Source of the DNA: Chloroflexota bacterium
GTDB taxonomy: Bacteria > Chloroflexota > UBA11872 > VXOZ01
Direction: 5' to 3'
DNA length: 64,000 nt
Assembly: GCA_012270555.1 (NCBI GenBank)
Contig: JAAXIC010000031.1
Location: 59,350 to 123,349, forward strand
The translations under genes were made by a program, and so were the position numbers. The notes below the pieces were generated by a model. It was not told the DNA's origin. It saw nothing but the letters and a program-made list of their open reading frames with translations, and made no database searches. Shown here one piece after another: positions 26,596 through 32,890 of this stretch; positions within the stretch are counted from its first letter, which is position 1; each line of letters begins with the position of its first letter.

Positions 26596-27945
26596 CTACC
26601 AGAGACAACCGCGATCGTCCAACCAACCTTGGACTTGATCCTGCGTCTTCTGTAGCGCCTCCGGCACCGTTATGGCGCCTTCCAAGATTGCCGGCCACGT
26701 CTCATTGCGCCAGATATCGTTGAAGTCACCCTGTTGGATCAGCGTGGGCGTTGCATTGGCGATTGACGCCATCGTCTTATAGACGCTGGCGTCCTCGTAG
26801 TCCTTGGTCGTGATCGGTTCGCGGCGCAAGTCCGCCGGATAGCGTCCGCCGCCCTGCGGCACCCAGATCTCTTGCAGGTCGCCGATTACAGTGTGCTTGA
26901 TGAAGTCCCAGCCGCCCTCGGCGTTCTCCGCCTGTGAACCGAGGTGGATGGCGACCACGGCATAGGCGGCTTTACGCCCGCCGGGCCCATTTGGAGTCGG
27001 CGCCATGCCGACTTCAAACAGGTTCGTCGGCGTGACTTGCTCGTTGATGCGCCGGATCTGGAAGTGACCGGTGTGATAGATGGCCGTATTGCCCTCGAAG
27101 TAATTGCCGCCTTGGACGCGGTGCTTGGTAAAGGTATCCGCCTGAAACTGCACCGCATCGCGGAAGGCATCGCTGCCAAAACCGCCTTGGCTACAATCCG
27201 GATTCCAGAATTCGGCCCCCCAAGCCCAAGAATAGTACGTCAGCACAGAGGGAACGTGCGGCTGGGTGCCCATGCCGCCTACCACTACTTCATCGCCTTC
27301 GACCTTGGTCAGCTTTATGGCCGCTTCCAAAGCGGCATCCCAGGTCCAATTGCCCTCAGCCTCGAGCTCGGTCGGGGTCTTGAGACCGGCATTGACGATG
27401 AGGCTCTTGTTGTACCAGATCTCCCGCGAGTTGATCCACCAAGCCACGCCGTAGTTCTGGCCCTTGTGGATCCACTTGGCGGCCTCGTGGAAGTTAGCGG
27501 GATCGATATCGGGGTCCGTGGCAATGATGGGATCGAGCGGCTGGACAATGTTGCCCGCCACAAAAGTTCCTACCCATCCAAAGTAGCCGTAAATGATGTC
27601 GAATTTGATTCCGCCGGCTTGCGCCGCTGCCGCTTTGGTTGGCAGTTCACCGAACGCGGAGTCAGCGATTGCAATCTTCTGATCCGGGTTCTTCGCCTCG
27701 AACGTCTCTACCACCTCCGCCCAACCATTGCGCCAGGTCTCGTTCTGGCCTTCCAGCACGTGGAGGAAGTTAACCGTCTTGGGGCCTTCGTCTTTGGGTG
27801 CGGCCTCTGCTGCCTTCGGGGCCTCGCCCTCTTGTCCCGAATCGGCAGGTGTTGCCGGCACCGCGCCGCAGGCTGCCGAAATCGCGACCGCACCGCCTAC
27901 CAGCGCGCCGCGTAGAATTGATCGCCGAGATAGTGTATCCGCCAT
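26596..27945 (-). CDS. Extracellular solute-binding lipoprotein (family 1), orphan
   Basis: A 449-residue family 1 solute-binding protein. The N-terminus SRRSILRGALVGGAVAISAAC combines a twin-arginine start and a lipobox; an acidic, Ala/Pro-rich linker of about 25 residues follows the lipid Cys. The body contains EGQNETWRNGWAEVVETFEAKNPD, IQPLDPIIATDPDIDP and GGWDFIKHTVIGDLQ, matching ABC sugar-binding proteins. No ABC permease genes accompany it; neighbours are a nitrilase and a divergent toroid protein. A strong GGAGGG ribosome site precedes the ATG. A terminator sits directly after the stop, so it is its own transcription unit. Confidence 0.88.
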   Translation of the reverse strand: MADTLSRRSILRGALVGGAVAISAACGAVPATPADSGQEGEAPKAAEAAPKDEGPKTVNFLHVLEGQNETWRNGWAEVVETFEAKNPDQKIAIADSAFGELPTKAAAAQAGGIKFDIIYGYFGWVGTFVAGNIVQPLDPIIATDPDIDPANFHEAAKWIHKGQNYGVAWWINSREIWYNKSLIVNAGLKTPTELEAEGNWTWDAALEAAIKLTKVEGDEVVVGGMGTQPHVPSVLTYYSWAWGAEFWNPDCSQGGFGSDAFRDAVQFQADTFTKHRVQGGNYFEGNTAIYHTGHFQIRRINEQVTPTNLFEVGMAPTPNGPGGRKAAYAVVAIHLGSQAENAEGGWDFIKHTVIGDLQEIWVPQGGGRYPADLRREPITTKDYEDASVYKTMASIANATPTLIQQGDFNDIWRNETWPAILEGAITVPEALQKTQDQVQGWLDDRGCLW

Positions 27946-28057
27946 CGTTTCCCTCCTCTAATAGAAGGACTCTGATAATGGGAAAACTCCGGAAGTTGTG
28001 CGGCCGATGCTGTGCTGTACCCCGCCTCCTTTCGCTCCATCAAGCCGCTTCGCCCGT

Positions 28058-28087
28058 AGTATAGCAGTTAGTTGCAGTCTGGCGCAA
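28058..28087 (-). promoter_or_regulatory. Candidate promoter of the solute-binding lipoprotein
   Basis: On the minus strand an extended -10 (TGC before TATACT, plus-strand 28058-28063) lies 18 bases from TTGCGC (plus-strand 28082-28087), about 113 bases before the lipoprotein start. A TTGACA also lies further upstream but at a poor distance. Confidence 0.4.
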
Positions 28088-28207
28088 TTGTCAAGCACTT
28101 GACCATCAGAAAGGTAGTTCAAAAGTGAGCGAATTACGTTGCAAAACGCTGCTGAGATGCAATTGGATAGACTAAGGAGGAATAATGTATGGTATCTCCG
28201 CAATCGT

Positions 28208-29194
28208 ATGGCGGACAGCGACAGATTGAATCACTCATCACGAGCAATTGCAAAGCCGAGGGCAGATGTGAAAACACTTTCGCGAGCGGCGTTTCAGGAT
28301 GCCATTTCTTTCGTAAAGGAAAAGGGCAGAGACTTGGACCGCGCGCTGCTGGCATATCACTTTGAAGATGGCGCTGCCGATGAAGTCTTGGCGGCGCTCG
28401 CGGCGTATCAGAACGACGACGGAGGATTTGGTCACGGACTAGAGCCGGACCTCAGAACGTCGGCGTCGTCAGTGATTGCGACCACCGTAGCGTTTCAGAA
28501 CTTTCGGTCTCTGGGCGTCCCTGCCGAACATCCGCTCGTGCGCAGGGGACTTGATTATCTGCTCGAGACTTACGATGAGTCCCGGCAGGTGTGGCCGATC
28601 ATTCCGCCCGAGGTCGAAGACGCGCCCCACGCGCCGTGGTGGGACTACGCCAGCAGTGAAGCGGGCTTTGGTGGGTTCTTGAGCAACCCGCGGGTGGAGA
28701 TTGTGGGGTACCTGCACGACTATTGTGCTGTGGTGCCGGCGGACTTACTGGAATCGGTGACGACGGCGGTTTTTGCGCACTTGGACTCTCTGCCCGATGA
28801 AATGGAGATGCACGACCTCATCTGCTTCGTCAGCCTTGCGGAGACGGCAGCGCTGCCTCAATCCCGCAAGGACCGCATCTGGGAGAAAATCGCCAAAGCG
28901 GCTGAGCTTGGCGTCGCACGGGAACCGGAACAGTTGACCGGCTATGTGCTGAAGCCCTTGTATGTGGTTTCTTCTCCAGACGCGCCGCTGGCGGAGCAGT
29001 TCGCGGAAGAAGTGGCAATGAATCTGGACTTCGAAATCGAGCAGCAGGGCGCGGACGGCGCGTGGTCGCCGAATTTTTCGTGGGGAGACCAGCATCCGGA
29101 GGCCTGGGAGATAGCCAAACGCGAATGGCAGGCTCGCATTACCTTGAAAAATCTGAGAGTGCTGCGCGACTTCGACCGCATTGAGACTGGCTAA
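28208..29194 (+). CDS. Alpha/alpha-toroid (prenyltransferase/terpene cyclase-like) protein
   Basis: About 328 residues. The sequence has repeated helix pairs with the Gly/Asp-rich turns of the toroid fold: YQNDDGGFGHGLEPDLRTSASSVIATTVAFQ, then HPLVRRGLDYLLETYDE, and GADGAWSPNFSWGDQHPEAWEIA at the C-terminus. This resembles squalene/terpene cyclase and prenyltransferase-beta repeats, but the DxDD or DDxxD catalytic motifs of cyclases are not obvious, so enzyme activity is uncertain. The start is unclear: the strong AAGGAGG at 28174-28180 leads to ATG codons in other frames, and ATG 28208 lacks a ribosome site. The final 230 bases are repeated at 30013-30245. Confidence 0.65.
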   Translation: MADSDRLNHSSRAIAKPRADVKTLSRAAFQDAISFVKEKGRDLDRALLAYHFEDGAADEVLAALAAYQNDDGGFGHGLEPDLRTSASSVIATTVAFQNFRSLGVPAEHPLVRRGLDYLLETYDESRQVWPIIPPEVEDAPHAPWWDYASSEAGFGGFLSNPRVEIVGYLHDYCAVVPADLLESVTTAVFAHLDSLPDEMEMHDLICFVSLAETAALPQSRKDRIWEKIAKAAELGVAREPEQLTGYVLKPLYVVSSPDAPLAEQFAEEVAMNLDFEIEQQGADGAWSPNFSWGDQHPEAWEIAKREWQARITLKNLRVLRDFDRIETG

Positions 29195-29268
29195 GACTGG
29201 GCAGCTATAGCGGGAGAGAAGAGATTGGTGACATGTGGACGGATGCCTCTCTCTAATGTAGAAGCAAG

Positions 29269-30006
29269 ATGACGCTGAGGCTGTACGTGAAACGAGTGTG
29301 CGCGCTTCTTCTTGATTTGGACGATACACTGCTGGACGGTAGCTCATTTCCGCAATCTGTTACTCGCACCTGCGAGGAGCTCTCGTCGCTGCGGACAGGG
29401 CTAGAGGCCAAGCAATTGCAGGAAGCCAATTACGCAGTGTTCCGTACCTACGGGCAAGAGAGTCATGACGCTTGGACGCTGGGCAGATTGAGCGGTGCAG
29501 AACTTGCTGTCGAGGCCTGGCGTAGGACGCTTCAGGCCTGTGGCAACCATGACGACGCGCTCGCTCAATTTGCAGCCAAGACACACTTGCGCTTTGCCTG
29601 GGAATCCTATCAGCCTTTCCCTGACGTAGCGGGACTCATGAGTGCAGTGCGGCAGGCACGCGTCCCGATAGCCCTGGTAACGAATGGCGCCGCCGACACG
29701 CAGCGAATTAAGATCGAGGCTTTAGGTATTGCTAGCAGTTTTAGTGCTCTTTCCATCTCAGGTGAGACCGGCGTGGCCAAACCGGATAAACGTGCGTTTA
29801 CTGTTTTGCTCACGGCGCTGGGTGTATCCGGCAAAAGTGTATGGCACGTGGGAGATAGCCTGGCGTCTGACGTTGCCGGAGCAAACGCAGCCGGACTTAG
29901 CTCGGTGTGGCTGAATCGGGACGGGACAGTACGGAGCAAGAATGATGCCCAACCTGATTTGGAAATCACATCACTTTCTGAATTAACTCCCTATCTCTTG
30001 CAATGA
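29269..30006 (+). CDS. HAD superfamily hydrolase (phosphatase-like)
   Basis: A 245-residue HAD phosphatase with all motifs: I in LLLDLDDTLLDGS, II at IALVTNGA, III Lys in GVAKPDKRAF and IV in HVGDSLASDVAGANAAG. The cap is of the C1 helical type. The closest named relatives are YjjG/REG-2-like nucleotide or sugar phosphatases, but the substrate cannot be told. The gene lies between the toroid gene and a repeated fragment of that gene's 3' end, and its stop overlaps the fragment's ATG (ATGA at 30003-30006). This placement suggests insertion into, or replacement within, a tandem duplication. Confidence 0.87.
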   Translation: MTLRLYVKRVCALLLDLDDTLLDGSSFPQSVTRTCEELSSLRTGLEAKQLQEANYAVFRTYGQESHDAWTLGRLSGAELAVEAWRRTLQACGNHDDALAQFAAKTHLRFAWESYQPFPDVAGLMSAVRQARVPIALVTNGAADTQRIKIEALGIASSFSALSISGETGVAKPDKRAFTVLLTALGVSGKSVWHVGDSLASDVAGANAAGLSSVWLNRDGTVRSKNDAQPDLEITSLSELTPYLLQ

Positions 30007-30245
30007 GTACGAATGTGGTTTCTTCCCCAGACGCGCCGCTGGCAGAGCAGTTCGCGGAAGAAGTGGCAATGAATCTGGACTTCGAAATCGAGCAGCAGGG
30101 CGCGGACGGCGCGTGGTCGCCGAATTTCTCATGGGGCGATCAACACCCCGAGGCGTGGAAGATTGCCAGACGTGAGTGGCAGGCCCGCATCACGCTGCGT
30201 ACCTTGAGAACGTTGCGGGATTTTGGCCGTATCGAAACGGTCTGA
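30003..30245 (+). pseudogene. Duplicated 3' fragment of the toroid gene
   Basis: An 80-codon frame that starts with ATG overlapping the HAD stop and repeats the last 77 residues of the toroid protein (VVSSPDAPLAEQFAEEVAMN... to the end). At DNA level, 30013-30127 differs from 28962-29076 at only two positions, while the remaining part to the stop differs much more, mostly at silent positions. It may be a truncated paralog whose protein is still under selection, or a dead remnant. It has no promoter of its own but could be made by coupling to the HAD gene. Confidence 0.7.
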
Positions 30246-30289
30246 GCAAGCACGCGGCACAGCGGCGCTGAAGCGAGGCGCGTACCGCA

Positions 30290-31102
30290 TTATTCTTCTC
30301 GCCACGGCAGACGCCATAACCCCAACGACATGCTGACTAGCGCGAAGCCTGCCAGTACGGCGAGTTCGACCAAGATATCGGTACGACCGGACAGTGACTT
30401 CGTGATCCCATCAGCGGCATACCGAAGCGGTGAAACGTAGCCCAGCGCCTTCAGCAGCAGGGGCGCTTGCTCCATGGTGAAGTAAACGGGCGACAAGGCT
30501 GCAAGCACGAGTGCCAGCAGAGCGGTGCTGATATTACCGGCCTGAAGCGTGGGGGCGAAGCTGACGACGAACATGGTCAAGCCGGCCATCGTAAGCACCG
30601 TCAGAAAAAGTGAGGGTATGAGACCCCAAGTGATGTTTACATCCACTCCCGACGCGAATCCGAAGCCAAGCAGCATCACCACCGTTATGACGCCGGATAT
30701 GGACGAATAGGCCAGTGTGCCAAGGACGTACGCGCCTTTCGATACCGGCATGGTAATGAGCAGCTTGAGATTTCCCATGAACCGTTGCGCGACCGCGTTC
30801 TGTCCGACGAGCATGCCGATAGACATGGCCACACCGAAAACCAACGTGCCCGCGAGCAGGCGGCGGACCACCGCCGGATCGTCCGGCGCAATCGCTTTGG
30901 TTACGTAGAACCATGGGATAGGAAAGGCAGCGGCCAAGAGCACCATTAGATACCACTGTCTCAAAGTTGGCAGGAGATTAATCTCGAAGACCGAGACGGC
31001 GTCGGACATGAACTTCATGACGCCTCCGGTTCGATAGTGGCCTCCGGTGGTGTTCAGGTTCCGGTTTAGCCGGTCTCTGCTTTGCCGCGGCGAATCATCC
31101 AT
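30290..31102 (-). CDS. ABC-2 type permease
   Basis: About 270 residues with six predicted membrane segments; the first begins RQWYLMVLLAAAFPIPWFY, and the family region FMGNLKLLITMPVSKGAYVLG (the EGT/xxLPVS-like cytoplasmic loop) precedes the third. A short polar N-terminus precedes an alternative start, ATG 31018. The start at 31102 overlaps the ATPase stop (TAATG), arguing for coupled translation. It pairs with the ATPase just upstream and is the last of six genes in the cluster. It resembles DrrB-like drug or lipid export permeases; substrate unknown. Confidence 0.85.
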   Translation of the reverse strand: MDDSPRQSRDRLNRNLNTTGGHYRTGGVMKFMSDAVSVFEINLLPTLRQWYLMVLLAAAFPIPWFYVTKAIAPDDPAVVRRLLAGTLVFGVAMSIGMLVGQNAVAQRFMGNLKLLITMPVSKGAYVLGTLAYSSISGVITVVMLLGFGFASGVDVNITWGLIPSLFLTVLTMAGLTMFVVSFAPTLQAGNISTALLALVLAALSPVYFTMEQAPLLLKALGYVSPLRYAADGITKSLSGRTDILVELAVLAGFALVSMSLGLWRLPWREE

Positions 31103-31980
31103 TAGCTTGCCCCATCTTCGTCTAGTGTACGTTTATCACGGGTGAGACCGAGATAGACGTCTTCCAACGTTGTCCTTGCAACGGCGTACTGACGAATGCC
31201 TTTGGCTTGCACCTGTGCGACCAACTCTCTGTCGCTGGCGCCATAGAGCGTTTCGGTCCTAGCGCCCGCGTCGAACATAATCTTGTATGCGAACCCATGT
31301 CCGGCCTTTAGATTATCCACCGTATCGAGCGCCAACAACCTGCCGTCTTGGATGATACCTACTCTATCGCACAAGACTTCGGCCTCCTCCATGTTGTGGG
31401 TCGTGAGCAGAATGGTTGAGCCTTGGCGTCGGTAGCCAAGCAGCAGGTCCCACAGGTCGTGGCGCGCCTCGGGATCGAGGCCGGCGCTGGGCTCATCCAG
31501 GACCATGAGCGGAGGGTCGGCCAGCGCGGCGATGCCGATCAATAGGCGGCGCTTGAGGCCGCCGGACAACTCGTCGGCGAGCTTATTACGGTGCTCCTCA
31601 AGCCGCAGGTCGGCTATCAACTCCTCGGCCCGGCGCGCTGCCATCCTGCCAGATAAGCCGCGCAATTTGCCGAAGATGCGCAGGTGGTGGCGCACGGATA
31701 GCCCGTAGTAGAGTTGGGCCTCTTGAGGCATGACGCCCATATAGCCCTTAGCTTCGTTGTAGTTAGCCACCGCATCGATGCCGAAAACACGGACTTCGCC
31801 TGAGGTCGGTATCAGCTCCGTGGTGATCTGCCGCACGAGGGTGGTCTTGCCCGCGCCGTTGGGCCCCAGGATGCCCAGCAACTCTCCCGGTTCAACGGTG
31901 AGCGAGATTTCGCGATTCGCCCAGACGCCGTTCTTGTAGCGCTTGCTGAGCTGCTTGACGTCAACCGGTGGCGCTTGCAT
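31102..31980 (-). CDS. ABC transporter ATP-binding protein (DrrA-like)
   Basis: A 292-residue ATPase: Walker A PNGAGKTT, Q-loop near MGVMPQEAQLY, signature ELSGGLKRRL, Walker B MVLDEPSAGLD and H-loop LLTTHNMEEAEVL. The C-terminal 70 residues form the short accessory domain seen in DrrA/NodI-type proteins (ARTTLEDVYLGLTRD is the typical end). The permease follows with a TAATG overlap. About 187 bases separate it from the upstream permease gene (32168), so it may have its own promoter in that gap; no clear -10/-35 pair is seen there. Confidence 0.9.
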   Translation of the reverse strand: MQAPPVDVKQLSKRYKNGVWANREISLTVEPGELLGILGPNGAGKTTLVRQITTELIPTSGEVRVFGIDAVANYNEAKGYMGVMPQEAQLYYGLSVRHHLRIFGKLRGLSGRMAARRAEELIADLRLEEHRNKLADELSGGLKRRLLIGIAALADPPLMVLDEPSAGLDPEARHDLWDLLLGYRRQGSTILLTTHNMEEAEVLCDRVGIIQDGRLLALDTVDNLKAGHGFAYKIMFDAGARTETLYGASDRELVAQVQAKGIRQYAVARTTLEDVYLGLTRDKRTLDEDGAS

Positions 31981-32167
31981 AGGGATAATTTCCCAACGCT
32001 ACTACGGTGAATGGTTCTGCAGTAAGCTCTTGAATTGCTGCCGGCAATGTTGATTCATCGCACGACTAAAGTATCAAGAGTGCCTATACACCGACGCGGT
32101 TCTTACGGGTCAACAACCTCAACACGTGAAGGGTGGTGACAATGGGCAGCGCCTGTCGCGCCCGGTT

Positions 32168-32890
32168 CTAGGGCACGTCCATGGTGCGCAGGCGATACAG
32201 CGCCAGCAGGAAGAAGGCCACGATCACGACACCCGTGCCGACAATGGCGGCGGGAAACTCGATCACGCGCTGCTCGAAAGCGGCAAAGCTCTCCTCATCG
32301 AGGCCGTGGAGCAGCGCGAGCGTGTAGCCGCGCACGCTGAGGTAGCGTACGCCGCTCACGATTGTACTGAGCAACCCTTCCCAGACGAGCACATATACCA
32401 GACCGTAGGCCAGCGCCCGTGGGGTCAGGAGACCGGCTAAAGTGAAGATTGAGGCGTAGGTGGTTACACTCGCCGCCAGCGCAAGCGCGAGCGTGCCGAG
32501 GGTCTGCGTCTCAGCGCCTACTAGGGCGGACGCCACGACTCCGCTCGCCACCACCAAAGGCACGGCTACGACCAAGGTGGCGAGCAGTTTTGCCAGCACG
32601 ATGGACACCCGCGAGACCGGTTTCAATACAAGATAATACAGCGTCTTGTCTTCGAGCTCGTTGCCGAAGGCGGCGGTCGCCAACGTCATTGTCACGATGG
32701 GCAGGATGCCGCCGATTACCATGCCGTCAATTATGAGGTCAATGACCTCACCTTCGAAGGCAAGCTCTGCCTCGCCTAGAGCTCTGATCAGCAGGATGAG
32801 CAGCGTGGGCATAGCGGCGAGGAGCAGGATGACGAGCACGCGCCAGCGGCCGAGAAGCTGCCTGAGCGATAGCGTGAAGATTTCAGTCAT
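32168..32890 (-). CDS. ABC-2 type permease
   Basis: A 240-residue permease with about six membrane segments, starting with RVLVILLLAAMPTLLILLIRAL and ending LFLLALYRLRTMDVP. The conserved loop ELEDKTLYYLVLKPVSRVSIVLAKLLAT matches the ABC-2 family. The ATG comes directly after the stop of the ATPase gene (TAG then ATG). It forms an exporter pair with 32891-33820. Compared with the other permeases of the cluster it is shorter. Substrate unknown. Confidence 0.86.
   Translation of the reverse strand: MTEIFTLSLRQLLGRWRVLVILLLAAMPTLLILLIRALGEAELAFEGEVIDLIIDGMVIGGILPIVTMTLATAAFGNELEDKTLYYLVLKPVSRVSIVLAKLLATLVVAVPLVVASGVVASALVGAETQTLGTLALALAASVTTYASIFTLAGLLTPRALAYGLVYVLVWEGLLSTIVSGVRYLSVRGYTLALLHGLDEESFAAFEQRVIEFPAAIVGTGVVIVAFFLLALYRLRTMDVP

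What the first reader, a model, noticed from the sequence alone, without database searches (positions are those of the whole stretch)
28962..30245. Toroid gene 3' end duplicated on both sides of a HAD phosphatase gene
Seen: 28962-29076 and 30013-30127 differ at two positions of 115, yet the remaining ~118 bases diverge strongly while protein sequence stays alike (silent changes). The HAD gene sits between and its stop overlaps the ATG of the fragment. This fits an old tandem duplication with gene loss, a HAD insertion, and recent conversion of the first half.
Basis: seen in the sequence. Interest (0 to 1): 0.55.

Follow-up and report, generated by a model that had tools for sequence, protein, structure and literature searches.

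The report
Gene-end scar beside an inserted transporter
A short second copy of a gene's end sits next to two transporter genes that this bacterium appears to have acquired; it looks like a scar of ordinary DNA recombination, half from the cell's own gene and half from a relative's gene.

Summary
The repeat is real. 28962-29076 and 30013-30127 differ at 2 of 115 positions; the next 113 positions differ at 34. Comparison with five congeners changes the interpretation. The HAD gene is not an insertion: it directly follows the toroid gene in 4 of 5 congeners, with the ABC permease of 32168 next. What is special to this genome is a ~2.15 kb stretch, 30013-32167, holding the toroid fragment plus an ABC-2 permease and an ABC ATPase. 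The fragment is a chimera: its first half is native-derived; its second half is equally far from all six genus copies (32-36 of 113 differences, against 2-25 among those six) and branches outside them. Best explanation: a 1051-bp tandem duplication (28962-30012), then a homologous exchange inside the second toroid copy with related foreign DNA of layout toroid-ABC-ABC, which replaced the second HAD copy with the ABC pair. Direct insertion with later conversion of the first half remains possible, and an assembly error could not be tested. The ATGA overlap is HAD's ordinary 3' end. A recombination scar of known kind; interest is low.

The parts
28139..29194 (+). native 'toroid' gene, intact; the congener alignment supports a start at 28268 (GTG)
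   Evidence: no Pfam family, weak sub-cutoff NCBIfam match to 2,3-oxidosqualene cyclase E=1e-4
28962..29195 (+). repeat copy 1 (inside the native gene)
29269..30006 (+). HAD-family hydrolase gene, ancestral neighbour of toroid
   Evidence: Pfam PF00702 E=2.2e-23; present next to toroid in G001, G002, G004, G005
30012..30013 (.). left junction: end of similarity to the congeners, join of HAD's 3' end to toroid position 28962
   Evidence: join found in 0 of 5 congeners
30013..30127 (+). fragment, first half: native-derived copy of 28962-29076
   Evidence: 2 of 115 differences from native; distances to congeners as native's
30128..30245 (+). fragment, second half: toroid 3' end of foreign type
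   Evidence: 32-36 of 113 differences from all six genus copies; tree
30290..31102 (-). ABC-2 type permease gene, in the extra stretch
   Evidence: PF01061 E=1.1e-12; 86% DNA relative of the pair in G002 at another place
31102..31980 (-). ABC ATPase gene, in the extra stretch
   Evidence: PF00005 E=7.5e-28
31981..32167 (.). spacer of unknown origin; no match in the loci held other than the window's own
32168..32890 (-). ABC permease gene at which similarity to the congeners resumes (right edge of the extra stretch)

Best explanation
30013-30245 is a recombination scar, not a functional gene part. Shown: the order toroid-HAD-permease(32168) is that of 4 of 5 congeners; this genome alone carries an extra 30013-32167; the fragment is native-like up to 30127 and unlike any genus copy after it. 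Inferred order: (1) a tandem duplication of 28962-30012 (1051 bp) gave toroid-HAD-toroid3'-HAD; (2) DNA from a related lineage, with a toroid gene followed by an ABC permease and ATPase, recombined homologously inside the second toroid copy, within the conserved stretch at about 30087-30127, and joined on the right near the 3' end of the gene at 32168. This replaced the second HAD copy and the old spacer with the ABC pair and left the first toroid and HAD genes intact.
For: Conserved toroid-HAD-permease order in 4 of 5 congeners and the extra stretch only here. Spacing of 1051 equals the distance from 28962 to the end of similarity at 30012. Sharp change in divergence after 29076. Fragment first half has native's distances to the congeners and shares one base (29035/30086) with native alone. 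Second half is outside the six-genome clade, support 95/92, and with it against Poribacteria, 98/98. The left join has no extended shared sequence; the right end falls at a block conserved in all congeners.
Against: No genome with the intermediate (two HAD copies) or with the proposed donor layout was found. The gene at 32168 shows no stretch as divergent as the fragment's second half, so a homologous right-hand crossover is not shown. The tree rests on 113 columns, and a fragment+native clade is not rejected (p-AU 0.158). The ABC pair is 86% like G002's, closer than the toroid half is to any genus copy, so both need not come from one donor. The congeners themselves are mosaics.
Confidence: 0.55

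Rival explanations
1. Direct capture: foreign DNA (toroid 3' end-ABC-ABC) was inserted between HAD and the permease, perhaps by homology-facilitated illegitimate recombination with one homologous and one non-homologous end; later the native gene converted the first half of the fragment.
For: Non-homologous left join; same number of events; a conversion tract that ends at the edge of the homology is natural; the mechanism is known from other bacteria (abstract of PMC3240628; passages of PMC5361080).
Against: Needs an extra conversion that starts exactly at the fragment's left edge; no anchor end is shown.
Confidence: 0.3
2. Assembly artefact: strains in one metagenome were joined into a structure that no cell has.
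For: The genome is a draft of 56 contigs; native and fragment share an identical run of 83 nt (28994-29076); the locus is mosaic against G004 and G005; structure seen in one genome only.
Against: The left join itself has no extended shared sequence on which an assembler would merge reads; the two fragment-specific bases and the foreign half are linked to the ABC pair on a 281,739-base contig.
Confidence: 0.12
3. One reading: old tandem duplication with gene loss, HAD insertion between the copies, and recent conversion of the first half.
For: Two similar copies with a sharp change in divergence.
Against: HAD already follows toroid in 4 of 5 congeners that lack the second copy; the second half lies outside the genus clade; the ABC pair in the same stretch is left unexplained.
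Confidence: 0.03

Closest known systems
Tandem (segmental) duplication followed by homologous replacement or partial loss in bacterial chromosomes (general knowledge, recalled)
   Same: Direct repeat whose spacing equals the duplicated unit, with a join that lacks extended homology
   Different: The second copy is a native/foreign chimera next to foreign-type genes, and the second HAD copy is gone
Homology-facilitated illegitimate recombination (PMC3240628, abstract seen; PMC5361080, passages seen)
   Same: Foreign genes arrive with non-homologous joining at one end; displaced 3' gene ends stay behind, as proposed for the T6SS clusters of Vibrio cholerae
   Different: Here the first half of the fragment is native, which this mechanism alone does not give, and no homologous anchor end is proven

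Membership tests
Tandem duplication scar | Spacing of the repeat equals the length of the duplicated unit | tested here: met
   1051 nt between copies; similarity to congeners ends at 30012/30013, 1051 nt after 28962. By construction this holds for any repeat that starts right after HAD, so it is weak support
Tandem duplication scar | A relative or strain with the complete duplicated unit | tested here: not met
   0 of 5 congeners has the join or a second toroid or HAD copy at the locus
Homologous replacement by related foreign DNA | Sharp switch from native-type to foreign-type sequence within a homologous stretch | tested here: met
   2 of 115 then 34 of 113 differences; distances to congeners switch too
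Homologous replacement by related foreign DNA | A second switch inside homologous sequence on the other side | tested here: inconclusive
   right edge is at the 3' end of the 32168 gene; no strongly divergent tract inside it
Homology-facilitated illegitimate recombination | One homologous end and one illegitimate end on the acquired segment | tested here: inconclusive
   left join is non-homologous; the right end cannot be classed
Homology-facilitated illegitimate recombination | Known donor sequence that shows which part was transferred | tested here: not met
   no donor layout toroid-ABC-ABC among the loci examined

The most novel reading that the evidence does not exclude
The chimeric 80-residue ORF is translated by stop-start coupling from HAD and has a role of its own, for example as a partner or competitor of the full toroid protein.
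Probability: 0.03. Interest if true: 0.5.

Novelty: new member of a known kind. Interest (0 to 1): 0.2.

Why it matters
If right, it shows how an ABC transporter pair can be added to a chromosome while the neighbouring genes stay intact, leaving a scar in which native and foreign halves can still be told apart. It also corrects the reading that the HAD gene was inserted. It is mainly of use to those who study gene exchange in uncultivated Chloroflexota.

Tried and rejected
HAD insertion: rejected from the congeners' gene order. Conversion of native by the fragment: not supported, since native's first half has normal genus distances. Poribacteria as donor of the second half: the nearest of 15 Poribacteria rows is at distance 0.27 and the genus copies at 0.28-0.32, so distances alone do not decide, but the tree places the fragment with the genus against Poribacteria (98/98). 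Among the 15 Poribacteria loci no HAD match at E 1e-10 and no match to the ABC pair above 40% identity lies in the flanks held (up to 6 kb, shorter where contigs end; matches to the ABC proteins at 40% or less were filtered from the print). Translational coupling as an evolved feature: the ATGA at HAD's stop also exists in G001 and G002, which lack the fragment. The ABC pair's site in G002: its two tested neighbour genes have no close ortholog in the other five genomes (best 36% and 34% identity), so it is an accessory site and gives no donor layout. A literature search with six terms on duplication plus transfer gave one unrelated paper. Promoter scan of 28800-32300: no promoter-like site, 0.9 expected by chance. 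The structure prediction tools were not used, as the question is one of origin.

Full report
Observation. The window lies on a 281,739-base contig of a 3.18 Mb draft genome, G000. The direct repeat is 28962-29195 / 30013-30246, 84% identical, spacing 1051. Differences are 2 of 115, then 34 of 113. The change point lies after 29076 (Fisher p 5.6e-10; 0 of 20000 permutations reach the observed max-chi2). In the second half 23 changed codons are silent and 7 replace a residue. The fragment is an open frame of 80 codons that starts on the ATG overlapping HAD's stop.

Relatives. The genus holds six genomes here, G000-G005. The five besides G000 each have one toroid match. In G001, G002, G004 and G005 the HAD gene follows toroid and is followed by the equivalent of the permease gene at 32168; G003 has toroid and then that permease without HAD between. 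Similarity to the four HAD-bearing congeners runs to 30012 or 30013 and resumes at 32165-32169. The extra stretch holds the fragment, an ABC-2 permease and an ABC ATPase. The pair has an 86% DNA relative in G002 at another place, weaker ones in G001 (67%) and G020 (70%); in G003, G004 and G005 only short or weak matches were found (G005 is 69% complete, so absence there is weak evidence). The HAD|toroid join was found in 0 of 5 congeners. That these are sponge-associated lineages is recalled, not tested.

Where the halves come from. In the first half the fragment's differences from G005, G004, G002, G001 and G003 are 13, 15, 19, 24 and 22, and native's are 12, 13, 18, 24 and 21. One base (29035/30086) is shared by native and fragment only (alignment). 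So the first half is native-derived. In the second half the fragment differs from native, G005, G004, G002, G001 and G003 by 34, 33, 33, 36, 32 and 35 of 113, whereas those six differ among themselves by 2-25. A tree of those 113 columns, with 15 Poribacteria and 2 Anaerolineae loci taken from the 59, gives the six genus copies as a clade without the fragment (95/92) and fragment plus six against the rest (98/98). A clade of fragment plus native is not rejected (p-AU 0.158), so on 113 columns the placement is good but not final. The donor of this half is therefore most likely a related Chloroflexota lineage that is not sampled.

Mechanism. The spacing of 1051 is the distance from 28962 to the end of HAD's similarity at 30012, and the join has no extended shared sequence. 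A tandem duplication of toroid end plus HAD would give this. A homologous exchange with DNA of layout toroid-ABC-ABC inside the second toroid copy would then give the observed chimera, remove the second HAD and bring in the ABC pair, without gene conversion. The crossover would lie between 30087 (after the last base shared only with native) and 30127. The right end coincides with the conserved 3' end of the permease gene at 32168. That gene differs from G005 by about a tenth of its positions up to about 32921 and much less beyond, but it shows no stretch as divergent as the fragment's second half, so I cannot show a donor tract there. The rival, direct insertion plus conversion of the first half by native, uses as many events and is not excluded. 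Homology-facilitated illegitimate recombination is described in the abstract of PMC3240628 and invoked for displaced genes and 3' ends in Vibrio cholerae in passages of PMC5361080.

The ATGA overlap. HAD's stop also lies in ATGAGT in G001 and G002, which have no fragment. The overlap therefore existed before the fragment arrived and is no evidence for an evolved translational coupling.

Mosaic background. Native is nearly identical to G005 from about 27825 to 28944, diverges from it over 28945-29895 while being nearly identical to G004 over about 29057-29285 and 29479-29786 (with a mixed patch between), and is again nearly identical to G005 at 29896-30012. Such switches suggest frequent exchange among congeners, or a chimeric assembly, which reads would decide.

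Verdict. The feature is real, explained in outline, and of a known kind. The part I hold with most confidence is that HAD is ancestral and that the fragment is a native/foreign chimera at the edge of an acquired ABC pair; the order of events is less certain.

Noticed in passing
27825-30012: The window's locus switches between near-identity with G005 and near-identity with G004 in tracts of a few hundred bases, which suggests frequent recombination among congeners or a chimeric assembly.
   Followed up: partly
L074-L088: Fifteen Poribacteria loci encode toroid proteins 59-66% identical to this Chloroflexota one, closer than most Chloroflexota relatives found, which hints at transfer between the two phyla.
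   Followed up: no
G003:C59 (L021, 8755-9090): G003 lacks the HAD gene between toroid and the permease, so HAD was lost there or gained in the other congeners.
   Followed up: no
G005:C104:1747-2478: The HAD gene of G005 is reported with one TAA inside the match, so it may be a pseudogene there or the stop may lie at the edge of the match.
   Followed up: no
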